DNA from: a virus
Virus record (IMG/VR): IMGVR_UViG_3300044546_001195
Span: 1 to 39,601 of that record
Strand: one strand, 5' to 3'
Length of the DNA stretch: 39,601 bases
Of this stretch, positions 4,308 through 30,645 are shown in pieces (positions within the stretch are counted from its first letter, which is position 1; every line of letters begins with the position of its first letter). Made by a program: the position numbers and the translations under genes. A model generated the notes under the pieces. The model saw only the letters and a program-made list of their open reading frames with translations. It was not told the origin of the DNA and searched no databases.

Positions 4308-6494
4308 ATGGATAAATATAAAAACAAATCATCTATAAAAGCAAAAATTGCACTTGGACTGGCAATTTTTGTCATGTCTATATTCTTCATCGTGAAGACT
4401 ATGGTATTCATGGAAGAAATTCCATCAACTCCGATGACGAGAGGAATAGAATATGGATGCTTTCTACTATTCATACCAATCTTTGGAGTATTCGCAAAGG
4501 AATTTCTAAAAAGAGGTAAAGAAGATGCCAAGCAAGGAATCTATCTAAAAAAACTAAACAATGTTCTTATAGAACAATCACATAATCATTTATTTTATGA
4601 AGGTGATGTAACTAATGGTGCAAAAGCTTTAGTAAAAGAAGTAACCAATTCAATCGATGCAGATAGATGTTCTATTTGGCTATACAACGAAGACAAGACT
4701 TCTATATTATGTGAACAGCTTTATGTAAAAGCAGAAGATAAGTTCTACCAAAATATAGAACTTTTTGAAAAAGACTTTGGTGGATACTTTGAACATCTTA
4801 CAATAGATCCTATAATAGTCGCAAATGATGCAGAGACACATCCTGCAACAAAATGCTTTACAGAATCTTACTTAAAGCCACTTGGTATAAAGTCTATGCT
4901 AGACGTTCCAATCGTATATAAAGGAAAAGTTATAGGAGTTATCTGTATAGAAAACCTTATACTTAGAGAATGGCAAAAGGTAGAAGTTGACTTTGCACAA
5001 ATGTTATCATCTTTATATTCGTTTGCTTATTCAGTAAGAGAATCAAATATTGTTTCAAATGAACTTATTGAAATGGAGAGATTCATAGATGAGGCAAACA
5101 TTATATCAAAGGCTGATAAAAATGGGAAGATAACATATGTGAATAAAAAATTTACAGAAGTTTCTGGATGGACATTAGAAGAAGCTCTTGGTAAAGACCA
5201 TAATAAAGTAAACTCCGATACATATACTAAAGATTCGGAAGAAGTACCATTTATCGCAATACCGCCAGAATTCTGGAATAACATGTATAATACCGTAATA
5301 AAAGATAAGAAAATCTGGAATGAAGTGGTTACCAACAAGAAAAAAGACGGAAGCCTTTACTATTTAGACACTTATATTAAGGCATCATTTGATAAGAATG
5401 ATGTTCTAAAAGGGTTTACATCTATTAGACAAGATTTAACAGAACTTAAAAATAAAGAAGTTGATATCAGCAACAGGATGAATGCGATAAACAGATCTAA
5501 CGCAGTAATCGAATTTGATATGGAAGGAAACATAATATATGCAAATCATCAGTTCTTAGATACACTTGGATATTCTTTCGATGATATAAAGGGTAAAAAA
5601 CATAAAATATTCTTAGAAGAAGAGTACAAAGACAGTAAAGAGTATAAAGACTTTTGGCAAGTACTTAAAAATGGAGAATATTTTATGGGAGAAATAAGAA
5701 GAGTCAAAAAAGATGGTTCTATAGTATTTCTTCAAGCAACCTACAATCCAATCATTGGAACGGATGGAAAGCCTTACCGAATAATGAAGATTGCAAACGA
5801 TATAACACTTTCTGTAAAACAACAGATTGAGATTGAAAGAAAGAATACTTATTTAGAACACTCAGCTAAGATACTTAGACACGATATGCATAGTGGAATA
5901 AACACTTATATGCCAAGAGGTTTAAACTCATTAGAACGTAGATTGACAGAAGACCAAATAAAAGAGTTAAAGATAGAAGCACCTATCAAAATGATTAAAG
6001 AAGGTCTTAGACATACACAAAAAGTTTATAAAGGTGTTTATGAGTTCACAAACCTTGTTAAGAAAGACGTTGTTTTAAATAAAGCAGAGTGTGATCTTAA
6101 AGCTATTTTAGAAGATTACTTATCAGCAACCGCTTATAAGAACCAAGTAGTGATAGAGGATATTGGAACAGAGAATGTCAATGAAGCTCTTTTTTGTACG
6201 GCACTCGACAATCTTATCAGAAACGGATTGAAGTATAATGATAGTTCAAGTAAGGTTGTAAAGATATACAGAGTTGAAGATGTTCTTTTCGTAGAAGATA
6301 ATGGTAGAGGAATGACTCAAGAAGATTTTAAAGCATTATCAGAACCTTATACACGAAAAGAAGGACAGAAAGAAAGCGGGACCGGTTTAGGTTTAAATAT
6401 ATGTGTAGCAATTTTAGAAGAACATAAGTTCTCTATAACATGTGATAAACTACCTGAAGGTGGAACGCAACTAAAAATAAATATGAAAAAATGA
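4308..6494 (+). CDS. Membrane-anchored sensor histidine kinase (GAF-PAS-PAS-HATPase)
   Basis: A 728-residue sensor kinase. Two N-terminal membrane segments (about 10-33 and 41-62) form a hairpin; a GAF domain follows (about 80-235, including LGIKSMLDVPIVYKGKVIGV), then two PAS domains with PAC-like tails (about 250-375 and 390-510). The dimerisation/phosphoacceptor helix contains LRHDMHSGIN with probable phosphoacceptor H525. The HATPase domain has an N box DNLIRNGLKYND (from 634), a G1 box VEDNGRGMT (from 662) and a G2 box GTGLGLNI near 692, so it looks catalytically intact. Its stop overlaps the response-regulator start (ATGA), implying co-translation and a cognate pair. The stimulus is unknown; a small ligand sensed by GAF or PAS is likely. 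An intact sensor kinase is very unusual in a phage. Confidence 0.92.
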   Translation: MDKYKNKSSIKAKIALGLAIFVMSIFFIVKTMVFMEEIPSTPMTRGIEYGCFLLFIPIFGVFAKEFLKRGKEDAKQGIYLKKLNNVLIEQSHNHLFYEGDVTNGAKALVKEVTNSIDADRCSIWLYNEDKTSILCEQLYVKAEDKFYQNIELFEKDFGGYFEHLTIDPIIVANDAETHPATKCFTESYLKPLGIKSMLDVPIVYKGKVIGVICIENLILREWQKVEVDFAQMLSSLYSFAYSVRESNIVSNELIEMERFIDEANIISKADKNGKITYVNKKFTEVSGWTLEEALGKDHNKVNSDTYTKDSEEVPFIAIPPEFWNNMYNTVIKDKKIWNEVVTNKKKDGSLYYLDTYIKASFDKNDVLKGFTSIRQDLTELKNKEVDISNRMNAINRSNAVIEFDMEGNIIYANHQFLDTLGYSFDDIKGKKHKIFLEEEYKDSKEYKDFWQVLKNGEYFMGEIRRVKKDGSIVFLQATYNPIIGTDGKPYRIMKIANDITLSVKQQIEIERKNTYLEHSAKILRHDMHSGINTYMPRGLNSLERRLTEDQIKELKIEAPIKMIKEGLRHTQKVYKGVYEFTNLVKKDVVLNKAECDLKAILEDYLSATAYKNQVVIEDIGTENVNEALFCTALDNLIRNGLKYNDSSSKVVKIYRVEDVLFVEDNGRGMTQEDFKALSEPYTRKEGQKESGTGLGLNICVAILEEHKFSITCDKLPEGGTQLKINMKK

Positions 6495-6928
6495 TAGATT
6501 CAATTTTATTAGTGGATGACGAAGATTTATTCCACTTAGTATTCGAAGACGCTTGTAGTCTTTTAGATATAACCCTTTCTTTACAAGGACTAAATAGTTC
6601 TGATGAAGCAGAAGGCCTTTTCAAAAAATGGTTTAATGAAGGACCAATCGATGAAAAACCAGAGTGTGTATTCGTTGACTTAAACATTATTGGTTCATCT
6701 TTCGATGGGATTGAACTTATTCGTAAGATAAACTTTGAATATGGTAATCACGTAGTAATCGGAATTATATCTTCTTCTGACGAACCAACAGAACAAGCTA
6801 AAGCTATTTCAGCAGGTGCTCAATTCTGGATAATCAAATCTGACGATATCGAACCAAGACTTGAAGAGTTCAGAAAAGACTATGATGGATATAAAAACAG
6901 AACGAACCCATTCAAGATTTATAAATAA
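6491..6928 (+). CDS. Single-domain response regulator (CheY-like receiver)
   Basis: A 145-residue stand-alone receiver domain. The acidic pair D9-D10 (LLVDDED), phosphoacceptor D63 (VFVDLN), the hydroxyl-residue switch in IISSSDE (S94-S96) and the conserved K116 (FWIIK) are all present. There is no DNA-binding or enzymatic output domain, so it must act by protein contact, as CheY or Spo0F-type regulators do. The ATG overlaps the kinase stop codon. It carries a slightly long loop between helix 2 and strand 3, common in receivers of the Rcp1/CheY subgroup that pair with PAS-rich kinases. The output partner may be the membrane coiled-coil protein encoded 3 bases downstream; that is inference. 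Confidence 0.9.
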   Translation: MIDSILLVDDEDLFHLVFEDACSLLDITLSLQGLNSSDEAEGLFKKWFNEGPIDEKPECVFVDLNIIGSSFDGIELIRKINFEYGNHVVIGIISSSDEPTEQAKAISAGAQFWIIKSDDIEPRLEEFRKDYDGYKNRTNPFKIYK

Positions 6929-7982: not shown

Positions 7983-7991
7983 CTATATATT
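7983..7991 (-). promoter_or_regulatory. AATATATA-N3-ATG start motif
   Basis: AATATATAG followed by TAT and the ATG at 7979 on the minus strand. It overlaps the ligase stop codon. Confidence 0.55.
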
Positions 7992-9201
7992 AATCTGCGT
8001 TTTCGTCTTCTGCAACATCTATGAAGAAAAGAGACGCATCTCTTTCTTTCAAGAATTCTCTGGCGACTTTTAACTTTCTTGTTTGGTCTGAAACCCAGTC
8101 TTTAGCTAAGTCATAGACATCAGCATTTCCTTTTGATAAAGACATAACATATCCAAAGTTTCTTTCTTTCTTATATTTCAAAGCGAAAGTCTTTCTCATT
8201 AGTTGTAATCTTAAATCTCCAGTCCAGTCTTTACCTACACCACCTTCTAAAAACAATTCGTAAGAGTTGTTTATATCTTTAACTTTTTCAGACACAGTGT
8301 GTTTTACAACAGCTATTATCTTTTCGATTCTAGCGTGTGCTTCAACTTCTTCTTCTGGTACTTGACCAAGAACGTCGTCTATTTTTTCATCCAAGACATA
8401 TCTAACCAATACGTGTTCTCTGTATAAGTCGTTAGTCAATAAACCATGTCTTTCACAATACCAAGCAGTCTTAACTTTTATGAAAAGTCCGTTGGAGAAT
8501 TCTATGATCCATCCTTCTTTGTCCTCTACTGATTGAGACAAATCAACAAGCTCGTCTAATGAAGCAACATCAGATGGTGCCACTTTCAAAGAACCTATTT
8601 CTTTAGAGAATTTAGACAAGTCTAAGTATTCTCCAGTTTTGTTATCTCTTAATCTCAATAATATCAATTCTTCGTCTAAGTATCTTAAAACGATTCTGTT
8701 GTTTGGTGCAACATATTCGAATACAGCCACATAGTCTTTTTCTAAAGACCAGTCTACAAATCTTTTCAAATCTGCGTTTGATTTATACAATCTGTTCATA
8801 CCGGCTGCTTGGTCAGATTCAAAAGACATTTTAGATTTACCCAACACAGATCCGTTTGGTAATCTTATAAAGGACGCAACAGAACCATCTTCTTTGTTGT
8901 AGATAGATCTTATACCTAAATCAGCAACCAAAGAGTATTGAGACTCTGGAACTTGGTTTAAGTTAAAGAATTTGTGTAGTAATAAATATCTGTTGAACAA
9001 AGAACCATCTTCGTTGAAGACAAAAGTCAAGCCTCTCATTTCGAATGCAGAGTTGTCTATGAAGTCAGAGTACATTGCTAAACGGTAGTTGAAGATAGAT
9101 ACATTATATCCTTCAACCACGAATTTTGATTCGTAGAATGGAGCATCTACACCTAAAGTAAGTGCAACCGCTTCGTCGTATGATAATAAGTATCTTTTCA
9201 T
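7990..9201 (-). CDS. rnlA: RNA ligase 1 (T4 RnlA-like)
   Basis: A 403-residue ATP-dependent RNA ligase of the T4 Rnl1 family (T4 protein 374 residues). Motif I is K103-E-D-G-S, the adenylated lysine. MRGLTFVF lies upstream as in Rnl1, followed by FEYVAPNNRIVL (motif III/IIIa region), EGWIIEF (motif IV) and IKVKTAWY (motif V). In T4 this enzyme reseals tRNA anticodon loops cut by host anticodon nucleases, using ends prepared by a kinase/phosphatase. No polynucleotide kinase is visible here, though a cyclic-phosphate-processing-type receiver protein and a 2H phosphoesterase are encoded elsewhere in the window. A TATCTTTG box with a near-match -33 (ATTG, 19-base spacing) lies upstream, and AATATATAG is 3 bases before the ATG. 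Confidence 0.93.
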   Translation of the reverse strand: MKRYLLSYDEAVALTLGVDAPFYESKFVVEGYNVSIFNYRLAMYSDFIDNSAFEMRGLTFVFNEDGSLFNRYLLLHKFFNLNQVPESQYSLVADLGIRSIYNKEDGSVASFIRLPNGSVLGKSKMSFESDQAAGMNRLYKSNADLKRFVDWSLEKDYVAVFEYVAPNNRIVLRYLDEELILLRLRDNKTGEYLDLSKFSKEIGSLKVAPSDVASLDELVDLSQSVEDKEGWIIEFSNGLFIKVKTAWYCERHGLLTNDLYREHVLVRYVLDEKIDDVLGQVPEEEVEAHARIEKIIAVVKHTVSEKVKDINNSYELFLEGGVGKDWTGDLRLQLMRKTFALKYKKERNFGYVMSLSKGNADVYDLAKDWVSDQTRKLKVAREFLKERDASLFFIDVAEDENAD

Positions 9202-11403: not shown

Positions 11404-11943
11404 ATGAAAAAGGATAAAGTACAAGAACTAAATACCAAAGAGATGAAAATAGATAGTAATACTATTGGACTTGATTTAACTGGTGAGAATGCTGTTGAGT
11501 TTGTATTAGAAGACAATCCAAGAGCACACGTTTCTGTTTTAGAAGAACAGTTGAAAGAAGAAAAGAATAAATATCTTCTTCTTTATGCAGACTTTGAAAA
11601 CTACAAAAGAAGAGTTCATAAAGAGAAAGAAGAGTTGAAAAACAATACCAAAGTTTCTATGATTACTTCTATCTTGGATATGGACAACGATATCGAACTT
11701 GCAATCAAAAACATCAAAGATGATTCTGCGAGAGATGGTGTTATGCTTATATCGTCAAAAGTTCAGAACTTTTTGAAGACTCATGGTATTGAACCAATAC
11801 AAACTGAAACTTATGACGAAGATCTTCACGAAGTAATCTCTGTTTTAGAGATTGGTGAGAATAAGATTGTCGATGTTGTTAGTAAAGGTTATACTTTAAA
11901 CGAAAAACCTTTCAGATTCCCTAAAATCGTATTAGGAAAGTAA
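11404..11943 (+). CDS. grpE: Nucleotide exchange factor GrpE
   Basis: A 179-residue GrpE. The family core is visible: a long N-terminal helix ending KNKYLLLYADFENYKRRV, a helical middle with ILDMDNDIELAI, and the C-terminal beta domain ending GYTLNEKPFRFPKIVLGK, which aligns with the standard GYxLxDxxxRxAxVxV ending. GrpE releases ADP from DnaK and so resets the chaperone cycle. The dnaK gene is 7.3 kb to the left and dnaJ is four small genes downstream in this same operon. The first 45 residues are not conserved in the family and are acidic, as in many GrpE proteins. Confidence 0.93.
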   Translation: MKKDKVQELNTKEMKIDSNTIGLDLTGENAVEFVLEDNPRAHVSVLEEQLKEEKNKYLLLYADFENYKRRVHKEKEELKNNTKVSMITSILDMDNDIELAIKNIKDDSARDGVMLISSKVQNFLKTHGIEPIQTETYDEDLHEVISVLEIGENKIVDVVSKGYTLNEKPFRFPKIVLGK

Positions 11944-13332: not shown

Positions 13333-14403
13333 ATGAGCAAAGACTACTACAGCGTTTTAGGAGTAGATAGAAACGCAACAGAAGAACAGATCAAAAAAGC
13401 TTATCGAAAGAAAGCGATGGAGTTCCATCCTGATAAAAATCCAGGAAACCCAGCGGCTGAAACAAAATTCAAAGAAGCTGCAGAAGCTTATGATGTACTT
13501 TCAGATGCTGGTAAAAAGTCTAACTACGACAACTTTGGTTCTGCAACAGGAAATCCTTTTGGTGGAGGTGGTGGAAACCCATTCGGTGGTGGAGGTCATG
13601 GATTCAATATGGATGACATCTTTTCACAATTTGGTGACATATTTGGAAACAGAGGTGGTGGAAAACAACAAAGAAGAAAAGCAAGAGGTTCTGATTTAAG
13701 AATCAAAGTTGTTTTGAATATTGATGAGATATTGAAAGGATGTACTAAGAAACTTAGGTATAAAAGACATACTAAATGTGATCCTTGTGCTGGAAAAGGT
13801 GGTACTGACGTAAGAGAATGTTTGGCTTGTAAAGGAAGTGGACATAGAACGGTTGTTCAGAATACACCATTTGGACAAATGAGAACAGAAACAACTTGTC
13901 CTGATTGTAGAGGTACAGGAAGTATAATAAGAAATCAATGTAATCATTGTCATGGAGAAGGAACTCAACTTAAAGAACAGGTTATTGATGTTGAAGTACC
14001 TGTAGGAGTATCAAACGGAATGCAACTTAATATGCAAGGGTATGGTAATGATGTAAGAGATGGTGTTGCTGGCGACCTACATATATTAGTGGAAGAAGCA
14101 CAAGACTTTTCATATAAGAGAGAAGGAAACAATTTGATAGTAGAAAAGACTATATCTGTTATAGATGCAATCTGTGGTGCACACGTCAAAGTATCTACTC
14201 CGCACGGAGAGCAATCTCTGTATATCGAACCAGGAACTGAACATGGTAGAACTGCTAGAATAGGTGGTAAAGGTATTCCAGATATACATTATGGATTGGG
14301 AGATTTGTTTATAAAAATATCAATAAAGATTCCTAGAAACATAGATATGGACGAGCAACACATACTCGAAAAACTAAAAGATTCCAAAAACTTTCAAGTA
14401 TAA
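13333..14403 (+). CDS. dnaJ: Chaperone DnaJ (Hsp40)
   Basis: A complete type-I Hsp40 of 356 residues. The J domain (1-70) has the H32-P33-D34 triad that activates DnaK; a Gly/Phe-rich linker covers about 72-112; the zinc-binding region has all four CxxCxGxG repeats (Cys pairs 149/152, 163/166, 189/192 and 203/206); two C-terminal substrate-binding domains follow. It delivers clients to DnaK. The linker carries three near-copies of NPFGGGG. It closes the operon that also contains grpE and is followed by a strong terminator. With dnaK and grpE it makes a complete set on one phage segment. Confidence 0.96.
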
Positions 14404-17600: not shown

Positions 17601-19767
17601 TGCTTTTGACGGTACTTTGGTCGAGAGTATCGAATTGTAGGTAAGCATATGATGACCCTACTGCGAAATAGTTTGAAACCAAAGATGATTCTCCGGTATT
17701 GTTGTATAAAGTTGGAGTAGTCGTTCCGGTTATTTTTGTAAAACCCCAAGCACCGACTAACCTATAAGCCAAGCTATCTAAGTTACCTCCAGTGTTTAGA
17801 TCTGCAAGTATATTTGTAATAGTTCCTCCTGATACCGAATTAGGGAAAGCGGATAGATTGAACAAATATGATGAATTCAATCCACCATTAACCAAATCTT
17901 TCCATTTGGTATATACTCCTAGGTTTAGATAGTCTACATCAGAGAAAGACTTTTTGATTGTAGAATCTAGATTCATTATCAATCCGTCACCTGTATAGAC
18001 AGACTCTTTTCTTACTGCTCTTACTCTTCCAAAGCTTGATTTGTTTTTAAAATAGTAATCAGCACCATTAGGAGTACCGGCAAAAGAATTAAAAGACATT
18101 GCAGCATTTGTGGAATTTGCTCCTCCAGATCCTGGTGGTCGAAAATATTCCGTTGATGTCCAATAATCTTTGATTAGGAAATTAAGACTATCATCCTTTA
18201 AAACTTTATTTATTATAGCTGCATTATTGAAGACTTGGTTTAGTTCGTAGTATGATGGTAGATACCAGTCATCATAACCAGAACCTCTATAATCAGCACA
18301 AACTTTTGCAGCACTATAGATTGTATTTAACGAGTTAGATTGTGCGATTATCACATCACTATTCAAATCTCCGTTATAAAGACTTTGTGCCAAAGCACCT
18401 ACGGTTGTACCCTGTGCTGCACCTGCAGCCCATCTGATATCTTGTATATAGGTCAGAGGTTCATAGTTCAATCCTGTTCCTGTAGAGTCGAACGAAATAT
18501 TTACCACCTCTTGTGCAGCAGGTACGTTCTGACCAACACCTGATGTTATTGGAGTCGTTTCAGAACCGACATAGTCTACATATATTCTGAATACACCCAT
18601 CGTTCCTTGTCCCTGATTGTATAGTATTCGGTAGTTTGCTGCAAGGTATTGAGCATTGGAAGACATCGCAGGATAATAAAAATCTACAGCAACCACACGA
18701 AAGACATTGACGACAGAAGTCGTAGTAGACTTTATTCTAAGCAATCCTTTTTGTACAACATTTGAATAGGTATACCCACCAGGAATGGTAGTAAATGAAC
18801 CAGCACCTGCCGCTTCATTTGGAACTAATCCAGATCCACCACCAGTTCCGTTTAAAGATAGGAAAAAGCCAGCCTGATCTACCAGATTTATATCTAAGTT
18901 GTGTATACATATAATAGCAACATTTTGAAGATTTCCACCACCATATGGACCAGATCCATTTAAATCGTGATAGGTTAAGAATTTATTCGTTGAGGTGGAT
19001 GTTCCAGGATTATCTAAAGTAGCATTAGTACCCATTTTGTATGGAATGGTTGTGATAGTTCCAATCGAGCCCGCACCATCTTCTGTAGTGATGTCCTCGT
19101 TCGATACGATAAGAACTTTTTCATCTTCTGCTTCTTTCCAAACTGCCGCGACTATTCCTCCTCCATATTTCTCTCCTATGTAGTGACCAAATGAGAAAAG
19201 AGACTTTACTGGTTTCCAAGTAGCCAACCCTGAAGAATCGGATGTCAATACTCTTTCAACACCCTCACTTGCATCTCTTATTTGTAAAGGATCGTAGAAT
19301 CCTACCGTAGTATCTGATATATAGTATCCATGTGCATCGGATGCACCGTATGTAGATATAGAAAATTGTGCACCATACTTATTTACATTAGCGGCAAATA
19401 TGTCGTAGTATCCAGAACAATATGCCCTAACATAGTAAGTAGTGTTTGGTAACAGAGTATCTATCTTCACACTATAGTCCCAATTTATTGAAGAAGCAGC
19501 GGCGCTATAAATTTCGGGTTTCATCAAAGAATCAATAACCTGTCCGGATATTGGTACTAAAGTATCAGTAGTGGTTGTATTTGAAATGGATTGTGCAGTT
19601 GTTATTGATATTGGTTGTGTACTATAAATAAAACCTAATCTTATATTAGTAATTCCTGGTCCAAAAGAACTCGGAATAAAAAATCCTGTTCCTTTTGCGA
19701 TTATCGAGCTATCTAATCTATTGGTTAATTCTATAGTTACTGAACCTAATTGTGCTGATGTTGCCAT
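14689..19767 (-). CDS. Giant tail adhesin with lectin-like, LamG and Fn3-like domains
   Basis: A 1692-residue, Ser/Thr/Gly/Asn-rich protein. In order: an Fn3-like region (1-150, with LLPNTTYYVRAY); a module from about 195 (YIGEKYGGGIVAAVW) to about 590 with DWYLPSYYELNQ near 499 and YWTSTE near 539; two LamG/concanavalin-like domains (about 824-1005 and 1066-1242, each ending in an F/I-x-I-Y-N-R/K-x-hydrophobic strand); a second copy of the first module (about 1309-1469, YIGELYGGG, DWYLPSVFEMNQ, YWTSTE, VRAFR); and a C-terminal Fn3-like piece (SSGVCWSTT). The repeated module fits Lcl_C/DUF1566, related to C-type-lectin folds. A receptor-binding role at the tail tip or fibre is inferred. No signal peptide, and the 505-residue relative is 7 bases upstream. 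Confidence 0.85.
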   Translation of the reverse strand: MATSAQLGSVTIELTNRLDSSIIAKGTGFFIPSSFGPGITNIRLGFIYSTQPISITTAQSISNTTTTDTLVPISGQVIDSLMKPEIYSAAASSINWDYSVKIDTLLPNTTYYVRAYCSGYYDIFAANVNKYGAQFSISTYGASDAHGYYISDTTVGFYDPLQIRDASEGVERVLTSDSSGLATWKPVKSLFSFGHYIGEKYGGGIVAAVWKEAEDEKVLIVSNEDITTEDGAGSIGTITTIPYKMGTNATLDNPGTSTSTNKFLTYHDLNGSGPYGGGNLQNVAIICIHNLDINLVDQAGFFLSLNGTGGGSGLVPNEAAGAGSFTTIPGGYTYSNVVQKGLLRIKSTTTSVVNVFRVVAVDFYYPAMSSNAQYLAANYRILYNQGQGTMGVFRIYVDYVGSETTPITSGVGQNVPAAQEVVNISFDSTGTGLNYEPLTYIQDIRWAAGAAQGTTVGALAQSLYNGDLNSDVIIAQSNSLNTIYSAAKVCADYRGSGYDDWYLPSYYELNQVFNNAAIINKVLKDDSLNFLIKDYWTSTEYFRPPGSGGANSTNAAMSFNSFAGTPNGADYYFKNKSSFGRVRAVRKESVYTGDGLIMNLDSTIKKSFSDVDYLNLGVYTKWKDLVNGGLNSSYLFNLSAFPNSVSGGTITNILADLNTGGNLDSLAYRLVGAWGFTKITGTTTPTLYNNTGESSLVSNYFAVGSSYAYLQFDTLDQSTVKSTVSATVNVYVSINSGGTPGAYFLLTQITNTVGNNNSGTGASVHIQLSQFSGKNISIKITAPNASYVDSVTKSGPSVDNIYVRTNVGGTPPTGPVYLPSESGFIRFNGNSYVDFQTTVGNTTTVTVEAWVRLKPAYSGKMIFGWDQYDVYCASGHLGFNTNSSDLYGISTTQVAKLNLVDNWNHYVFEMKTGAALGTAPNILSNNKIYINGNEQILSQQFPTSTPSATTANFNSGQGRIGGFRAALNYIMPMDMSVFRIYNRALTKDEIMKNYSVEKKRYEILPKLLDNNIFTSIDFDNTNSYSGDGTISGTVTDLSGNVRSATLTISGTTTIPAVQRTNTLYNGKELIFPGTIATNPYLAWANSVDFQAIQNLSVSFWVKLTERRNSTIIVRWNTTGATSGPWEVYQVLGTTLSTIGVRLKNLTVIVDKVGTKGIDLNKWTHVCATFDNTTKNLKTYIDSVLDINSSAPSTFTMATGIAGDVIVGRYSTAVNPLKGSLASIQIYNKSISYGEVRNNYDTDKFRFDNFNDANKFFSHEINGNPTFSISQNLSLEIGEISNEKILKLNSVGYSKWVDKNSIFSRPNNYRYIGELYGGGIIVAMWYYPKTIFNYLIMSLEDVSANSQWSNITSVVSNATSDFKGENNQTSIIGQSGHTTSAAKLCDNYTGGGFTDWYLPSVFEMNQAFNAGSIVNTVLGSDSLAGSYWTSTEINAATAYYYSCSEASVPSVGYQKSDGKSGIKKVRAFRLATNAVDVGVWDTTWDEEYTPWWRRGWWEREWEPATYSPWDFDYNRDWRRTSISIDALPLVYQMAEQAVNSAYVAPQGYVSMTFSNSIYGGETVLSSGVCWSTTSTTPTLSDSVAYAISGKTTTPNIMGILPGTPWDGVVGAPYPIHFVYLRAFLTTATGTYYSSNSGAIRCSNFINGFNNTLYSTTLLTVGTTYSTSPTTYATYPTGCLVFHRNIYRTSSLYE

Positions 19768-22236: not shown

Positions 22237-22899
22237 ATGAAATACTTAAAGAGATATAACGAAAATTTTAAAGGTTTTGCTAATGTTGATACTAGTCAAG
22301 AAGCTTTCAATAGATGTCAAAACTTATCAGAGGACGAATTATTAAAAATATTAAGAGAAAATTGTAAAAACTTTTCACTTAGTAATGACCTTTTATATAG
22401 AAATAAAGAATATTCTGGTGATTTTCAATTATTTAAACCATATAAAAGAAGAGCAAACCCAGTAACTTTTCCAAAATTCTTTAATAGAATAGAAGACGAT
22501 TCAAACTATCCCGTTAAAAGAAAGTTGTCTTTGATAGGTGGTACGAATCCATCATTCATATCGGATTTGTTCCGGGATAAAATGGCAAGCAATATCAATA
22601 GCGATTCAGATTTTACAGTTTATATAGTTATACCATTTGATAATTCTAAGATTGTTTTTTGTCCAGTTCCGGATTTATTATTTTTAGACGATAGAACAAA
22701 AGAAGAATATGTGAGTGGTGAGCCAGTTAGTGATAAAAACTTTGTGATGGTTGAATATACAAAAGACTTTAAAATTCCTGAGGAAGAGTTAAGTAAACTA
22801 CCCGGTCATAAATCATCTCATTCGGGTTATGAGTTTTTTACATCCAGTAATTGTTTACTAATTCATGAATCATATATAGATATTTTAAACCAAATTTAA
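22237..22899 (+). CDS. Unknown protein with capsid-targeting-like N-terminus; possible ADP-ribosyltransferase fold
   Basis: A 220-residue protein beginning MKYLKRYNENFKGF, one of six in this window with such a start, which recalls the T4 capsid-targeting peptide (MKTYQEFIAE). A possible protease site of the gp21 type (L-S-E) occurs near residue 32. The body contains LLYRNKEYSGDF, KRKLSLIGGTN and YIVIPFDNSKIVFCPVPDLL. A YR near the start followed by a serine-containing strand recalls ADP-ribosyltransferases such as T4 Alt and ModA, but no firm catalytic glutamate can be placed, so this is only a hypothesis. A palindromic terminator ends the gene. Confidence 0.65.
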   Translation: MKYLKRYNENFKGFANVDTSQEAFNRCQNLSEDELLKILRENCKNFSLSNDLLYRNKEYSGDFQLFKPYKRRANPVTFPKFFNRIEDDSNYPVKRKLSLIGGTNPSFISDLFRDKMASNINSDSDFTVYIVIPFDNSKIVFCPVPDLLFLDDRTKEEYVSGEPVSDKNFVMVEYTKDFKIPEEELSKLPGHKSSHSGYEFFTSSNCLLIHESYIDILNQI

Positions 22900-25385: not shown

Positions 25386-26696
25386 ATGACAGAAAAAGTA
25401 AACGAACGTGTGAGCTACAAAGTTAAAGACATCTCTCTTGCAGAATTTGGAAGAAAAGAGATTAGACTTGCAGAGGCGGAGATGCCAGGATTGATGGCAA
25501 TACGTAAAGAATACGAAGAAAAACTTCCTTTAAAAGGAGCTAGAATCGCAGGATGTCTACATATGACTATCCAAACTGCAGTTCTGATTGAAACTCTTGT
25601 AGAATTAGGTGCAGAAGTATCTTGGAGTTCTTGTAATATTTTCTCTACACAAGATCACGCTGCGGCAGCAATCGCAGAAGCTGGAGTTCCAGTATATGCT
25701 TGGAAAGGAATGAATGAAGAAGAGTTTGATTGGTGTATCGAACAAACAATCAACGCATTCGAAGGTGGTAAATACCTTAATATGATTTTAGATGACGGTG
25801 GTGATTTAACAAACTTAGTTTTTGACAAATATCCACATTTAGCAGAAGATATTAAAGGTTTATCTGAAGAAACTACAACAGGAGTTCACAGACTTTATGA
25901 AAGAATGAAAAACGGAACTCTTTTATTACCAGCAATCAATGTAAACGATTCTGTTACTAAATCTAAGTTTGACAACAAATACGGATGTAAAGAATCTTTA
26001 GTAGACTCTATTCGTAGAGCAACTGACGTTATGATGGCAGGTAAAGTTTCTGTTGTATGTGGATATGGTGATGTAGGAAAAGGTTCGGCGGCTTCTTTAC
26101 AAGGTGCAGGTGCAAGAGTTATTGTTACTGAGATTGATCCTATTTGTGCTTTACAAGCAGCAATGGATGGATTTGAAGTAAAAAAACTTGACAATGTAAT
26201 CCATTTAGCAGACATCGTAGTTACTGCAACAGGAAACAAAGACATTATTAAAGGTAGACACTTTCTTGCGATGAAAGATAAGACTATCGTTTGTAATATT
26301 GGACACTTTGACAATGAGATTGATATGACTTGGTTAAATAAAAGCTATTCTAAGATTGAAGTTAAACCACAAGTTGATATCTATGATGTAGAAGGAAAAG
26401 ACGTTATCGTATTGGCAGAAGGAAGACTTGTGAACTTAGGTTGTGCTACAGGACATCCATCATTCGTAATGTCAAACTCTTTCACAAACCAAGTTCTTGC
26501 ACAGTTAGAACTTTGGAATAACTCTGATAAATATGAGAATAAAGTTTATACTTTACCTAAACATTTAGATGAGAAAGTAGCCAGACTTCACTTAGAGAAG
26601 ATTGGTGTAGAATTAGATGAACTTTCTAAAGAACAGGCTGATTATATTGGTGTTGCAGTAGAAGGACCATACAAAAACGACGAATACAGATACTAA
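25386..26696 (+). CDS. ahcY: S-adenosylhomocysteine hydrolase
   Basis: A full-length, 436-residue SAH hydrolase. Visible family blocks: [38 protein letters not shown], the NAD-binding loop [24 protein letters not shown] and the conserved C-terminus ending PYKNDEYRY with the penultimate-region lysine and tyrosine that close the cofactor site of the neighbouring subunit. It splits SAH into adenosine and homocysteine and so removes the product inhibitor of methyltransferases. The DNA cytosine methyltransferase starts one base after its stop codon, which suggests it supports DNA methylation during infection. SAH hydrolase is very rare in phages; acquisition from a Bacteroidetes host is inferred. 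Confidence 0.96.
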
Positions 26697-26697
26697 G

Positions 26698-27543
26698 ATG
26701 AACGTTCTTTCTTTATTTGATGGTATGTCTTGTGGACACATTGCTTTAGAAAAGCTTGGTATTGAAGTTGATCAATACTTTGCATCTGAGATAGAAGAAG
26801 CTTCTATTAAAGTAACTATGACAAACTATCCAAATACTATTCAAATAGGAGACGTTACTAAAGTGAATGGAAAAGATCTTCCAAAAATCGACTTGTTGAT
26901 TGGAGGAAGTCCTTGTCAATCACTATCCAATGCTGGAAATGGCTCTGGTTTTGACGGTAAGAGTGGGTTGTTCTATGAATGGGTAAGACTTTTGAAAGAA
27001 TGCCAACCAAAATACTTTATGCTTGAGAATGTAAAGATGAAGAAAGAATGGCAGGCGGTTATTACTGATATCTTAGGTGTAGAACCAATTCTTATCAATA
27101 GTAATCTTTTTTCCGCTCAGAATCGTCAGAGACTTTATTGGACTAATATTCCAATGAATACTTTACCTGATGATAAAGAGATTTACATCGAAGACATATT
27201 AGAAAGTGGATTTGATAAAAAGTATTGGTTACCTGAAAAGAACGCTGGATTGCTGAGCAAGAAAGTTGATATAACTGGTGCACCCGATATCTGTTGTATA
27301 GATGTTTACAACAAACGATATAAGAAGGATAGAAAAAGTCCTACTTTAACACATCCTTGTCATAACTCTTTAAGACTTTTACAAGATGGTAAGTTCAGAA
27401 AGCTAACGCCCATTGAATGTGAGCGACTTCAAACTGTTCCGGATGGATACACTAAAGGAGTTTCAGACACACATCGATATGCGATGCTTGGAAACGGCTG
27501 GACTGTAGATGTTATAGCACACATATTTAAAAACCTCGTTTAA
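26698..27543 (+). CDS. DNA (cytosine-5) methyltransferase
   Basis: A 281-residue C5-cytosine methyltransferase. Motif I LSLFDGMSCG binds SAM; GGSPCQSLSNAG is motif IV with catalytic C73; MLENVKM is motif VI (ENV); QNRQRLYWTN is motif VIII; and RKLTPIECERLQTVPDGY followed by AMLGNGWTV form motifs IX-X. The target-recognition region is short. The overall pattern is near the Dnmt3-like/phage 'orphan' group. No restriction partner lies beside it, so it probably protects phage DNA from host restriction. It begins one base after the SAH hydrolase stop codon and its last codons form a terminator stem. Confidence 0.95.
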   Translation: MNVLSLFDGMSCGHIALEKLGIEVDQYFASEIEEASIKVTMTNYPNTIQIGDVTKVNGKDLPKIDLLIGGSPCQSLSNAGNGSGFDGKSGLFYEWVRLLKECQPKYFMLENVKMKKEWQAVITDILGVEPILINSNLFSAQNRQRLYWTNIPMNTLPDDKEIYIEDILESGFDKKYWLPEKNAGLLSKKVDITGAPDICCIDVYNKRYKKDRKSPTLTHPCHNSLRLLQDGKFRKLTPIECERLQTVPDGYTKGVSDTHRYAMLGNGWTVDVIAHIFKNLV

Positions 27544-27560
27544 GACGAGGTTTTTTTGTT
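27531..27560 (+). terminator. Terminator overlapping the methyltransferase stop codon
   Basis: AAACCTCGT-TTAAG-ACGAGGTTT with a following T-run; the TAA stop is in the loop. Confidence 0.85.
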
Positions 27561-27570
27561 TTTATAAAAT

Positions 27571-27579
27571 AATATATAA
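27571..27579 (+). promoter_or_regulatory. AATATATA-N3-ATG start motif
   Basis: AATATATAA followed by CGT and the ATG at 27583. Confidence 0.55.
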
Positions 27580-27582
27580 CGT

Positions 27583-27873
27583 ATGAAGATATTAAGATTT
27601 GAAGAGTTTGAAATAAACGAATCTCTACCTAATAAGAAAACGGTAAATCAGTTGAAAAAGGTTATGAAGCAGTCTGCTAAAACAGATATTGGAAATCGTA
27701 TTTCGGACATGAACAAACAGGGAGCAAACCTACACTATATGCAAAATCCTATCGAGACTGGCATTGAATCGAAAGAAGACTATGACGAACACAACAAGAA
27801 ATTCGTTTCTTCTTGGAACCTAAAAGGTATGTTAGGACCATTCAAAGGAGAAGACAATAAACAAAACAAATAA
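27583..27873 (+). CDS. Small protein with capsid-targeting-like N-terminus
   Basis: A 96-residue basic protein beginning MKILRFEEFEINESLP. The first 13 residues match the family of related N-termini in this window and end in I11-N12-E13, a fit to the T4 prohead-protease (gp21) rule of cleavage after L/I-x-E. The rest (lysine-rich with NIGxR-like helix and a WNLKGMLGPFKG stretch) has no recognised domain. If packaged and processed it would be an internal head protein of about 83 residues. First of five consecutive genes carrying the peptide. Confidence 0.72.
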   Translation: MKILRFEEFEINESLPNKKTVNQLKKVMKQSAKTDIGNRISDMNKQGANLHYMQNPIETGIESKEDYDEHNKKFVSSWNLKGMLGPFKGEDNKQNK

Positions 27874-27883
27874 ATATTTAAAA

Positions 27884-28645
27884 GTGATTTATTTAGAAAA
27901 ATATTTGGATTTTATGAGTAAAGGAATATTAATACCTATTGGTGGGGCCGAAAGTAAAGGATCTAAAGTAGATATAGATAATAGTATTCTATCAGAAGTT
28001 ATAAAAGTTTCTAAATTTGGAACGGATTCAAATATTATAATAATTCCAACCGCATCATCTTATCAAAATGAAATAGATTCTGAATATAGAACTACTTTTG
28101 AAAGATTTGGATGTAAAAATATAAAAACATTATTCATATCATCAAAAGATGAAGTAGATTCTGCTGATAATTTGGATCTATTAAACAATTCAAATATTTT
28201 AATGTTTTCAGGTGGTAATCAATCAAAAATAAGTGAATGTTTTTTAGGTACTAAATTTTTAGAATGTTTAAAAAATAAATTTAACTCAGAACACTTTGTT
28301 TTGGTGGGTACATCAGCAGGAGCAATGTGTATGTCAGAAAACATGATAACTGGCGGTGATAAAAATGTTAAATGTGGAATAGGTCTTTCTTTAATACCCG
28401 AATTTATAATTGATAGTCACTTTATCGAAAGAGATAGACTCGGTAGACTAGTTGAGGCAATTTCTATTTATCCAAATAGAATTGGTGTTGGTTTGGCAGA
28501 AGATACAGCAATCATAATAAAGAATGGTAAATTTAGGGTTATAGGATCTGGCAATGTTACCGTTTTCGATTCCAATGATTTGAAAAATGATTTAGAGTTT
28601 AGCGTTTTATCGTCAGGTGATACATTTAATATTAAAAATATATAA
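27884..28645 (+). CDS. Cyanophycinase-like serine peptidase (family S51)
   Basis: A 253-residue S51 peptidase. It shows ILIPIGGAESKGS, IIIIPTASS, LMFSGGNQSKI, the nucleophile elbow VGTSAGAMCM (S144), IIDSHFIERDRLGRLVEA (H179) and GVGLAEDTAIII, the full cyanophycinase-type order. Those enzymes hydrolyse beta-Asp-Arg storage polymers; relatives cleave Asp-X dipeptides, so the substrate is open. I use the GTG at 27884 rather than the ATG at 27914: the extra ten residues (MIYLEKYLDF) match the shared N-terminal peptide of neighbouring genes, though no L/I-x-E site follows closely. With the ATG, the protein would start exactly at the enzyme core. Confidence 0.85.
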   Translation: MIYLEKYLDFMSKGILIPIGGAESKGSKVDIDNSILSEVIKVSKFGTDSNIIIIPTASSYQNEIDSEYRTTFERFGCKNIKTLFISSKDEVDSADNLDLLNNSNILMFSGGNQSKISECFLGTKFLECLKNKFNSEHFVLVGTSAGAMCMSENMITGGDKNVKCGIGLSLIPEFIIDSHFIERDRLGRLVEAISIYPNRIGVGLAEDTAIIIKNGKFRVIGSGNVTVFDSNDLKNDLEFSVLSSGDTFNIKNI

Positions 28646-28650
28646 ATAAT

Positions 28651-29535
28651 ATGAAATATCTAAGCAAATACGAAAGTTTTTTAAATATCATAAAAGAGGC
28701 GGTATCCAATAGAAAGTTGATTCTTCTATCAGGACCTAGTGCTTCCGGAAAGTCATATCTGGCGGAAAAAACTTTAGGTGCAAAAAATTGGTACGAAGGA
28801 GATACTTCTGTAGCTTTGATTGGAACCGACAACTTTGGTGGTGAATCGAAGAAGACATTTCCAATGTTCTCAAAGTTGTTGAAGGAATTTGGTTGTCCGG
28901 AACTGGCTAAGTTTAAAGGAGACTGGTATTGGCTTATAGAGCTTTACAAAGATGACTACAAGAAATGGCAAGAAGTTGCATCAGATGAAGAGAAGAAGAA
29001 ATACGAAGAACTAAAAAGAAAGCTTCCTTTTGAGAAGTCACAAGACGAAAGTAAAAACTTTCCACACTACGGAAAGGATGGTAGGATTTGTGGAATGGCT
29101 TGGACAGCACACCTGTTACCAGAATCAGTAACCACCATTATATTCGACGACATATCAACAGGAATAGAAAACTATTTCAAAGTGCAAGACATTCTTGCTT
29201 TCACTCCATTGGATTGGATGATGAAGAACATCAAGTCTAGGGAAATCAATGTGAACGAAGAAGGAACTACCTTATATCAATATTGTGATTGGTTTATGGC
29301 AACAGACAAACCAGACTTAGATAATAAGATGTATACCGCAGAAATACTGACTGAGCTTTTAACAGAAGCAGGTCATGACAATCCAAAAGAAATACTAATC
29401 AGATTAGGAGTAAAAGGAGAGTTAGAGAATGAATTTTATATAACAACAAAACCAGGAGTTAAACCTGAAATTATTGTAAACACAAGAGACAAATCTACAG
29501 GAAGAGCAATCGGAATAGATGACTTATCGATATAA
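28651..29535 (+). CDS. P-loop kinase-like protein with capsid-targeting-like N-terminus
   Basis: A 294-residue protein. Residues 1-16 (MKYLSKYESFLNIIKE) match the shared N-terminal peptide and end in I-K-E, a possible prohead-protease site. Immediately after, KLILLSGPSASGKSYLAEK is a strand plus Walker A loop. TTIIFDDIST near residue 170 fits a Walker B strand. The rest does not match a kinase I can name; nucleotide, polynucleotide or zeta-toxin-like kinases are possible. Placement of the P-loop only a few residues beyond the peptide suggests the peptide is an add-on to a complete enzyme. AATATATAA lies 5 bases before the ATG. Confidence 0.78.
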   Translation: MKYLSKYESFLNIIKEAVSNRKLILLSGPSASGKSYLAEKTLGAKNWYEGDTSVALIGTDNFGGESKKTFPMFSKLLKEFGCPELAKFKGDWYWLIELYKDDYKKWQEVASDEEKKKYEELKRKLPFEKSQDESKNFPHYGKDGRICGMAWTAHLLPESVTTIIFDDISTGIENYFKVQDILAFTPLDWMMKNIKSREINVNEEGTTLYQYCDWFMATDKPDLDNKMYTAEILTELLTEAGHDNPKEILIRLGVKGELENEFYITTKPGVKPEIIVNTRDKSTGRAIGIDDLSI

Positions 29536-29541
29536 AAAATT

Positions 29542-29550
29542 AATATATAA
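29542..29550 (+). promoter_or_regulatory. AATATATA-N3-ATG start motif
   Basis: AATATATAA followed by ACT and the ATG at 29554; extended on the left to TTAATATATAA. Confidence 0.55.
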
Positions 29551-29553
29551 ACT

Positions 29554-29841
29554 ATGAAATATTTAAAAACATTTGAAGGCTACAACGATAAGAGTTTAGC
29601 AAGAGAGATTGCAGAAGACTTACTTCCACAACTACAAAAGATTAGAGACGAAAAAGGAATCTTTACCGTAAGTATGTTCGACAACTTCATGGAAGAAAGA
29701 AAAGGAGATATGAAATTGACTGACGAAGTTATTTCAGAACTTGTTGATTTAGGATTCCAATTCGACTATGATGATTCAGAAGACGAATATGACAGAGATC
29801 CTTTTGAAGGATACCCAGGAATGGAATACAGCTTAAACTAA
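29554..29841 (+). CDS. Small acidic protein with capsid-targeting-like N-terminus
   Basis: A 95-residue protein beginning MKYLKTFEGYNDKS, with I19-A20-E21 as a possible cleavage site. The rest is helical and then strongly acidic (YDDSEDEYDRDPFEG near the C-terminus). No family recognised. A hairpin terminator follows the stop codon. Confidence 0.72.
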   Translation: MKYLKTFEGYNDKSLAREIAEDLLPQLQKIRDEKGIFTVSMFDNFMEERKGDMKLTDEVISELVDLGFQFDYDDSEDEYDRDPFEGYPGMEYSLN

Positions 29842-29844
29842 ATA

Positions 29845-29874
29845 AAAAAGAGACTCAACTGAGTCTCTTTTGTT
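29845..29874. terminator. Bidirectional terminator
   Basis: AAAAGAGACTCA-AC-TGAGTCTCTTTT, between convergent genes. The stem is almost the same as that of the terminator at 521-553. Confidence 0.85.
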
Positions 29875-30043
29875 ATTTTAAAACCATATATTTTACACCA
29901 TCAACAATCTTAACGACATATTTACCAGTGTCTTTTTTCTCGACTTTTTTAGTAGCACGCTTAGACGCAGTTGCACCTTTAACACTTTTTTCAGCCTCAC
30001 CAAATTTGTTTTTTAAAACTTCCCTCATTGAATATCTTTCCAT
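29873..30043 (-). CDS. Small lysine-rich protein (56 residues)
   Basis: ATG at 30041-30043 to TAA at 29873-29875 encodes 56 residues: MERYSMREVLKNKFGEAEKS, then a basic linker (ASKRATKKVEKK) and a short beta-like tail ending VKYMVLK. A TATCTTTG box lies 25 bases before the start and a terminator at the end, making a stand-alone unit like the 58-residue gene near 14.5 kb. Not recognised; early, nucleic-acid-binding function is a guess from composition and promoter type. Confidence 0.65.
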   Translation of the reverse strand: MERYSMREVLKNKFGEAEKSVKGATASKRATKKVEKKDTGKYVVKIVDGVKYMVLK

Positions 30044-30068
30044 AGCTTTTCGTTTTTAGATTGTCTTA

Positions 30069-30076
30069 CAAAGATA
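30069..30076 (-). promoter_or_regulatory. Bacteroidetes-type -7 box (TATCTTTG)
   Basis: TATCTTTG on the minus strand, 25 bases before the 56-residue gene. No TTTG at the -33 position. Confidence 0.5.
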
Positions 30077-30102
30077 AGAATCTTTTTGAATGTGGTCACT
30101 AT

Positions 30103-30111
30103 AATATATAG
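30103..30111 (+). promoter_or_regulatory. AATATATA-N3-ATG start motif
   Basis: AATATATAG followed by AAT and the ATG at 30115. Confidence 0.55.
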
Positions 30112-30114
30112 AAT

Positions 30115-30645
30115 ATGAAAATAAAGAAATATACACAGTTTTTAAACGAATCAAGTGGGTTTAGTCTTGGTTGTGTTATGATAGAAGTTCCGGTATCAAA
30201 CTGGGAAGAAATAACATCATCTATTACAGAAGAAGATCTTTATACAGATGAAGGAAAGCCAGGTATTCAAGATAATCCTCATGTTACTATTCTTTATGGA
30301 TTACACGAAGAAGTTTCTTTGAATCAAATAAAATCTGTATTTGAAGGACTAAATGAGCGTATAGATATAAAGATAGAAGGAATAGGAGTATTTGAAAATG
30401 AAAACTTTGATGTAGTAAAATTCAATGTTGTTCCAATCGGTACTTTACAAAGTCTACACGACAAACTTTCCGAATTTCCAAACTCTAATGAGTATCCAGA
30501 ATACGAACCACATATAACTATAGCTTATGTTAAAAAAGGAAGTGGTAAGAAATACGAAGACTTAGAATACAGACATAGTGTTGATAATGTTAATGAAGTA
30601 TGTTATTCAATACCAGGTGGTTCCAAAGAATATTTCAAAATCTAA
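30115..30645 (+). CDS. 2H phosphoesterase (LigT/2'-5' RNA ligase-like) with capsid-targeting-like N-terminus
   Basis: A 176-residue 2H-superfamily protein with both signature motifs: H56-V-T58 (NPHVTILYG) and H133-I-T135 (EPHITIAYV). These enzymes open or cleave cyclic phosphates and 2'-5' or 3'-5' linkages. The N-terminus MKIKKYTQFLNE matches the shared peptide and ends with L10-N11-E12, a clean fit to the T4 gp21 cleavage rule. Two roles are plausible: RNA end healing alongside the RNA ligase, or degradation of cyclic oligonucleotide alarm signals as done by the phage anti-CBASS protein Acb1, which is also a 2H enzyme. Delivery with the genome would suit the second. Last gene of the five-gene peptide-bearing run. 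Confidence 0.87.
   Translation: MKIKKYTQFLNESSGFSLGCVMIEVPVSNWEEITSSITEEDLYTDEGKPGIQDNPHVTILYGLHEEVSLNQIKSVFEGLNERIDIKIEGIGVFENENFDVVKFNVVPIGTLQSLHDKLSEFPNSNEYPEYEPHITIAYVKKGSGKKYEDLEYRHSVDNVNEVCYSIPGGSKEYFKI

What the first reader, a model, noticed from the sequence alone, without database searches (positions are those of the whole stretch)
27583..30645. Five consecutive genes share a capsid-targeting-like N-terminal peptide: a possible injected-effector cassette
Proteins starting at 27583, 27884, 28651, 29554 and 30115 begin MKILRFEEFEINE, MIYLEKYLDF, MKYLSKYESFLN, MKYLKTFEGYND and MKIKKYTQFLNE; a sixth at 22237 begins MKYLKRYNENF. The bodies are unrelated (S51 peptidase, P-loop protein, 2H phosphoesterase, small unknowns). 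The peptide resembles the T4 internal-protein capsid-targeting sequence MKTYQEFIAE, which is removed by gp21 protease after L/I-x-E. L-N-E, I-N-E, I-K-E and I-A-E occur at residues 12, 13, 16 and 21 of four of the proteins. The inference is a set of enzymes packed in the head and delivered with the DNA to disarm the host at the first moment of infection.
Basis: partly seen in the sequence, partly recalled or inferred. Interest (0 to 1): 0.9.

Follow-up and report, generated by a model that had tools for sequence, protein, structure and literature searches.

The report
Huge-phage tag for packing proteins into heads
The five genes carry a short N-terminal tag that matches the signal phage T4 uses to load proteins into its head, and in this group of huge phages about one gene in seven carries it, which suggests that each virion ships a large kit of ready-made enzymes into the next host cell.

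Summary
A tag model built from other huge phages scores four cassette proteins (27583, 28651, 29554, 30115) at p<=0.0003; 22237 is weaker (p=0.003), and the S51 protein (27884) carries the tag only from a GTG start. The tag, M-[KRI]-x2-5-[YF]-x-x-[FY], marks about 14% of genes in relatives, including 91/637 in a 476-kb and 137/1011 in a 735-kb genome (about 1% expected). Its conserved positions are the mapped T4 capsid-targeting determinants (Y4, F7; cleavage I8-x-E10). The model, never shown T4, ranks T4's three internal proteins in its top four. Prohead-protease-like L/I-x-E sites follow the tag in 50% of tagged versus 7-8% of untagged proteins. The clade's protease-scaffold fusion consists of YSEY[IL]AEN repeats, the same core, and its gp23 has a matching HSINE|N site. 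Tagged genes carry the late promoter of the head genes (77% vs 29%); core replication genes lack tag and promoter. RNA ligase is tagged and late in some relatives, untagged with a host-like early promoter in others. Best reading: an expanded T4-type capsid-targeting system. Presence in virions, cleavage and injection are inferred; host disarming is untested.

The parts
27583..27621 (+). tag MKILRFEEFEINE of the 96-aa protein; predicted cut after E13 (INE|S)
   Evidence: p=0.0001; in relatives homology starts at the site while what precedes it changes: E|SLP or E|ALP in fusion proteins
27583..27873 (+). 96-aa tagged protein of unknown function; body also occurs as C-terminal module of larger proteins
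   Evidence: no Pfam match
27571..27578 (+). late-promoter element AATATATA, ATATATA starting 11 nt before the ATG
27532..27556 (+). terminator-like hairpin (AACCTCGT/ACGAGGTT plus T run) just before the cassette
   Evidence: sequence read
27884..27913 (+). tag-like MIYLEKYLDF in front of the cyanophycinase start Met; GTG start; no cleavage site
   Evidence: tag score 9.2 from the GTG; PDB cyanophycinase 7uqv aligns from residue 11; relative L028 has the tag with ATG start
27884..28645 (+). S51 peptidase, cyanophycinase-like
   Evidence: PF03575 E=2e-21; 7uqv E=6.8e-36
28637..28644 (+). late-promoter element AATATATA before 28651
28651..28698 (+). tag MKYLSKYESFLNIIKE; predicted cut after E16 (IKE|A), just before the P-loop domain
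   Evidence: p=0.0003
28651..29535 (+). P-loop protein, weakly like zeta toxin/polynucleotide-kinase NTPases
   Evidence: phrog_2071 ATPase E=7e-4; Zeta_toxin E=0.008, below cut-off
29542..29549 (+). late-promoter element AATATATA before 29554
29554..29616 (+). tag MKYLKTFEGYNDKSLAREIAE; predicted cut after E21 (IAE|D)
   Evidence: p=0.0003; M[KR][YH]LKTFE kept in most relatives with bodies 41-88% identical
29554..29841 (+). 95-aa tagged protein of unknown function
   Evidence: no Pfam match
30103..30110 (+). late-promoter element AATATATA before 30115
30115..30150 (+). tag MKIKKYTQFLNE; predicted cut after E12 (LNE|S)
   Evidence: p=0.0001; kept in 9 relatives; short low-confidence helix outside the fold in the model
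30115..30645 (+). 2H phosphoesterase (LigT/Usb1/Acb1 superfamily), both HxT motifs present
   Evidence: PF13563 E=6e-10, Acb1 E=9e-7; invariant H56/T58 and H133/T135; Foldseek Usb1, LigT, Acb1
22237..22269 (+). weaker tag MKYLKRYNENF, no site
   Evidence: p=0.003; homologue in G006 has the full tag MRYLKKYKVFENYNKF, score 14.6, with late promoter
22237..22899 (+). 220-aa tagged protein of unknown function
   Evidence: no Pfam match

Best explanation
The peptide is a capsid-targeting sequence of the T4 kind, used on a much larger scale. Shown by sequence: a tag with two aromatics three residues apart, usually followed by [LI]-x-E, at the start of 10-20% of genes; a scaffold built of tandem YSEY[IL]AEN repeats with the same core, fused to the gp21-type prohead protease; a matching predicted site in gp23; late-gene promoters on tagged genes. 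Inferred: during late infection the tag helix joins the scaffold core like one more scaffold repeat, so the cargo is enclosed in the prohead; the prohead protease cuts scaffold, gp23 and tags at the same E| motif, freeing the cargo inside the head; the cargo enters the next host with the DNA and acts before any phage gene is expressed. In the window the predicted cargo is a 2H phosphoesterase, a cyanophycinase-like peptidase, a P-loop protein and three unknown proteins.
For: Excess over internal-Met and shuffled controls in every relative. Cross-validated: a model blind to residues after the second aromatic, trained on one genome set, finds tags in 13.6-13.8% of genes of the other set, with E-sites at residues 9-16 in 45-50% of tagged versus 7.6-8.5% of untagged (p=1e-24 and 7e-53). 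Site enrichment stops after residue 24. [quoted passage not shown] The mapped T4 determinants (Y4/F7 targeting, I8/E10 processing; PMC9026906) coincide with the conserved tag positions. Core motif [YF]xx[YF][ILV]xE away from N-termini: 11 of 50 occurrences in G004, 11 of 21 in G015 and 14 of 55 in LR756501 lie in the protease-scaffold fusion, 0.2-0.5 expected by length. gp23 of the clade has HSINE|N where T4 gp23 has SFLTE|A. Late promoter AATATATA: 77.5% tagged versus 29.3% untagged, p=3e-25; carried by most gp17/18/20/23/25/4 homologues and not by gp32/41/43/44/46/47. RNA ligase, 66-69% identical: tagged and late versus untagged with host-like promoter. Fusions keep the E| site at module joints (2H-exonuclease ESLNE|NKMWYK, versus separate MKILKYSELINE|NKMWYK). 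Untagged 2H homologues in other phages start after the tag.
Against: No virion proteomics for this clade was found; the window and its 150-kb extension hold no recognisable gp21 or gp23, so protease, scaffold and gp23 come from relatives. About half of tagged proteins lack a canonical site near the tag. The S51 and 22237 members have none. At the 1% threshold roughly one tagged call in ten to fourteen is false; the ribosomal L12 of LR756501 is one. The full tag model does not score the scaffold repeats; only the shorter core matches, and that core was chosen after seeing the T4 CTS. Late expression fits any late product. Injection is not tested.
Confidence: 0.83

Rival explanations
1. The tag loads proteins into the prohead core, but they serve head assembly or DNA condensation there, or stay in the head, and are not injected as effectors.
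For: T4 IPIII affects head morphology and IPs co-purify with gp22 (PMC9026906); most tagged bodies have no known enzyme domain.
Against: Cargo bodies are extremely diverse (5% mean column identity) and include enzymes with no plausible assembly role: RNA ligase, tRNA nucleotidyltransferase, NUDIX, PPK2, methyltransferases, cyanophycinase.
Confidence: 0.15
2. The tag sends late proteins to another late structure (tail, membrane, docking site) and the resemblance to the T4 signal is convergent.
For: No direct virion data; half the tagged proteins lack a clear protease site.
Against: Site placement, scaffold repeats with the same core, gp23 site, blind recovery of T4 internal proteins, tagged genes inside or beside head gene blocks in MA9V-2, G015 and (as a variant MKTLxxLYEA) PAU.
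Confidence: 0.06
3. The shared start is compositional bias of AT-rich genes or a translation-start effect.
For: Genomes are about 30% GC and K, I, Y, F are common.
Against: Shuffled N-termini and internal Met sites in the same proteomes give about 1% versus about 14%; core replication genes lack it and PTm1 shows no expansion; it is kept across synonymous changes.
Confidence: 0.01

Closest known systems
T4 capsid targeting sequence of internal proteins IPI, IPII, IPIII (MKTYQEFIAE, MKTFKEF...)
   Same: Position at the N-terminus, two aromatics three apart, [IL]-x-E cut site, unrelated bodies behind it, gp21-type protease and gp22-type scaffold in the clade.
   Different: About 14% of all genes instead of three proteins; lysine-rich lead-in of 2-5 residues; enzyme cargo; polyprotein cargo with internal sites; protease and scaffold fused, the scaffold made of repeats of the tag core.
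phiKZ/SPN3US ejection and inner-body proteins
   Same: Many head proteins cut by a gp21-like protease after E and delivered into the cell (PMC9026906, PMC13282480).
   Different: From general knowledge those use other, often long propeptides; here the tag is 10-16 residues with a T4-type motif and the phages are T4-like (gp23, gp32).
Sphingomonas phage PAU head-block proteins gp149, 150, 152, 153, 154 (MKTLxxLYEA)
   Same: Shared short N-terminal peptide ending in L-x-E on unrelated small proteins between portal and gp23 genes.
   Different: Different motif; about 14 genes; not annotated as a targeting signal in the record.

Membership tests
T4-type capsid targeting sequence | short N-terminal peptide, about 10 residues, shared by unrelated proteins | tested here: met
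T4-type capsid targeting sequence | aromatic residues at the two mapped targeting positions (Y4, F7, spacing three) | tested here: met
   [YF]xx[FY] conserved; T4 ipI-III recovered by a model not trained on T4
T4-type capsid targeting sequence | [LI]-x-E processing site at or soon after the peptide | tested here: met
   50% versus 7-8%; four of six window proteins; actual cutting not shown
T4-type capsid targeting sequence | same phage encodes a gp21-type prohead protease and a scaffold core | tested here: met
   in relatives G004, G015, LR756502, LR756501; not in the window or its 150-kb extension, which are fragments
T4-type capsid targeting sequence | major capsid protein has a propeptide ending in the same kind of site | tested here: met
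   HSINE|N in the clade's gp23, placed by comparison with T4 SFLTE|A
T4-type capsid targeting sequence | protein present inside the virion, tag removed | not testable with these tools
   needs virion proteomics; no dataset found
T4-type capsid targeting sequence | proteins enter the host with the DNA | not testable with these tools
   experiment needed
Acb1 anti-CBASS nuclease (30115) | 2H fold with two HxT motifs | tested here: met
Acb1 anti-CBASS nuclease (30115) | closer to Acb1 than to LigT/Usb1; cleaves cyclic nucleotides | tested here: inconclusive
   Pfam and Foldseek favour 2'-5' RNA ligase, Usb1 and LigT slightly; activity not tested

The most novel reading that the evidence does not exclude
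The largest phages known ship a toolbox: roughly 50 to 140 different proteins per genome are addressed into the head by a peptide that copies one repeat of the scaffold, some as polyproteins that the prohead protease cuts into several cargoes, and the same enzyme switches between 'made early in the cell' and 'made late and shipped' by gaining or losing tag plus promoter.
Probability: 0.6. Interest if true: 0.9.

Novelty: new variant of a known kind. Interest (0 to 1): 0.82.

Why it matters
Most genes of huge phages have no known function. A readable address tag would sort about one in seven of them into 'packed in the head and active at the start of the next infection', a class that cannot be guessed from homology, and would list candidate early effectors. 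It also offers a testable answer to how the T4 capsid targeting sequence works (by resembling a scaffold repeat), predicts an unrecognised T4 head protein (gp61.1, MKTFKEFIKED), and gives a possible natural system for loading enzymes into large phage heads.

Tried and rejected
T4 late promoter TATAAATA: not enriched before tagged genes; the clade uses AATATATA instead. Ribosomal S21 and L12 as cargo: S21 untagged in the copies that could be read; L12 of LR756501 is a model false positive. Full tag model on scaffold repeats: no hits, only the core motif matches. Tenacibaculum phage PTm1: no tag expansion, so the system is not universal in related phages. Cellular homologues of the 2H enzyme in genome contigs: none confirmed. 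AlphaFold of the P-loop protein failed for lack of relatives (pLDDT 48), so its function stays open. Published virion proteomics for MA9V-1/2: only a gel or nothing. A search of held papers found no description of such an expansion, but most subscription journals are not held.
Full report
What was checked. The six N-termini are in the sequence as described. The window is a 39.6-kb virus fragment with a T4-type gp32; 29 related viral contigs were found by gp32 and many read whole: G004 476 kb, G008 263 kb, G002 150 kb (99.97% identical to the whole window) and others. gp23 of the relatives is 70% identical to that of LR756502 (642 kb) and 50% to LR756501 (735 kb), lengths that match genomes of the Mahaphage clade, predicted to infect Bacteroidetes (PMC7162821). 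LR756501, T4 and three cultured phages were also read whole.

The tag is a genome-wide feature. A pattern at called starts occurs in 6-14% of genes against about 1% after shuffling residues 2-16 and 0-0.7% at internal Met. A position-specific model gives 105/637 (6.4 expected), 48/299, 49/241 and 23/204 in relatives and 160/1011 in LR756501 (12.5 expected); at a stricter cut 91 and 137 in the two largest. Two models trained on disjoint genome sets, both blind to everything after the second aromatic, agree: 13.8% and 13.6% of genes tagged. In the window four cassette genes have p <= 0.0003 and 22237 has p=0.003. Bodies behind the tag are unrelated: 82 tagged proteins of G004 share only MKxxKxYxxF at the start of their alignment, mean column identity 5%.

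It matches the T4 signal in the places that matter. In T4 IPIII the targeting determinants are residues 4 and 7 (Y, F) and the processing determinants 8 and 10 (I, E) (PMC9026906). Those are the conserved tag positions. Without ever seeing T4 the models place ipI, ipII and ipIII in the top four of 256 T4 genes, with gp61.1 as the fourth.

The cut site. [LIVMF]-x-E followed by S/A/N/G/D/H/Q lies at residues 9-16 in 51% of tagged and 7% of untagged proteins, at 17-24 in 14% versus 7%, and is level beyond; the result holds under cross-validation. Homology boundaries agree: the 27583 body continues after E| while the part before changes from tag to unrelated domain; one relative has an internal tag (KILNFVDYVNE|SLP), and a 2H-exonuclease fusion keeps ESLNE|NKMWYK at the joint where the separate exonuclease gene of G004 reads MKILKYSELINE|NKMWYK. 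Other internal tags with sites exist.

The packing machinery. In G004, G015, LR756502 and LR756501 the gp21-type protease is fused to a scaffold made of 11-residue-type repeats such as NIAYSEYIAENLDK. The core [YF]xx[YF][ILV]xE, counted away from N-termini, is concentrated there: 11 of 50, 11 of 21 and 14 of 55 occurrences in G004, G015 and LR756501, against 0.2-0.5 expected. gp23 has HSINE|N at the place of T4 SFLTE|A. In G015 the tagged cassette sits just upstream of gp32, protease-scaffold and gp23 on one strand. In MA9V-2 tagged genes flank the portal gene, and gp23 itself carries WSEFINE|A; in PAU five head-block proteins share MKT[LI]xxL[YF]E. Inference: the tag is a stand-alone copy of a scaffold repeat.

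Timing. AATATATA lies upstream of 77.5% of tagged versus 29.3% of untagged genes with an intergenic start (p=3e-25), and the host-like TATTTG is depleted (5.4% versus 15.5%). Homologues of T4 late genes (gp4, 17, 18, 20, 23, 25) mostly carry a late element, while gp32, 41, 43, 44, 46 and 47 do not; nrdA and uvsX sometimes do. Four window cassette genes have the element with ATATATA starting 11-13 nt before the ATG. RNA ligase is the natural experiment: G004, G006 and G008 copies are tagged with the late element; G010 and G014 copies are untagged with a host-like element.

Tag as an add-on. PDB cyanophycinase aligns from residue 11 of the S51 protein. 2H homologues in Maribacter phage Molly, Microbacterium phage Magritte and LR756508 start without it. 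The AlphaFold model of 30115 places the tag as a short low-confidence helix outside a well-predicted 2H domain that starts at residue 19.

Cargo. Known domains among tagged proteins: RNA ligase, tRNA nucleotidyltransferase, 2H phosphoesterase, RNase T-type exonuclease, NUDIX, ClpP-like protease, zeta/kinase-type P-loop, methyltransferases, PPK2, CoaE, pyrimidine-dimer glycosylase, GNAT; most have none. Several fit repair of cut tRNA and fast takeover, but the function in infection is untested.

Limits. No protein has been seen in a virion; the window lacks its own head genes; about one tag call in ten to fourteen is false; the S51 start is uncertain; the comparison of tag and scaffold rests on a short core motif.

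Noticed in passing
L232:967-1131 (T4 18966-19130, gene 61.1): T4 gp61.1 (MKTFKEFIKEDM) scores with or above the known internal proteins ipI-III; it may be an unrecognised T4 head protein.
   Followed up: partly
L142:11953-12411 (T4 gene 57B): T4 57B (MMEFKDFS..., annotated RNA ligase, next to ipI; Acb1 by memory) ranks sixth or seventh of 256 T4 genes for the tag model when residues after the second aromatic are ignored; possible short or decayed tag.
   Followed up: no
window 27571-27578, 28637-28644, 29542-29549, 30103-30110: Late-promoter element in two position classes: about -30 (gp20, gp23) and -8 to -17 (58% of tagged genes with a free upstream). The near class would leave almost no leader on the mRNA.
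   Followed up: partly
window 2170-4062, 11404-11943, 13333-14403: Phage-encoded DnaK, GrpE and DnaJ, a complete Hsp70 set.
   Followed up: partly
window 4308-6928: Adjacent GAF/PAS sensor histidine kinase and response-regulator-like receiver (the latter just below the Pfam cut-off), a two-component pair in a phage.
   Followed up: partly
window 25386-27543: S-adenosylhomocysteine hydrolase directly followed by a C5-cytosine DNA methylase.
   Followed up: no
window 7990-9201: T4-type RNA ligase with a weak tag score (p=0.02) and both late and host-like promoter elements upstream; tagged and late in G004, G006 and G008.
   Followed up: partly
L144:1007-4023: Sphingomonas phage PAU has its own shared N-terminal peptide MKT[LI]xxL[YF]E, in about 14 genes genome-wide, five of them in the head block.
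   Followed up: partly
window 29873-30043: Small lysine-rich 56-aa ORF on the minus strand inside the cassette, with a host-like promoter element upstream.
   Followed up: no
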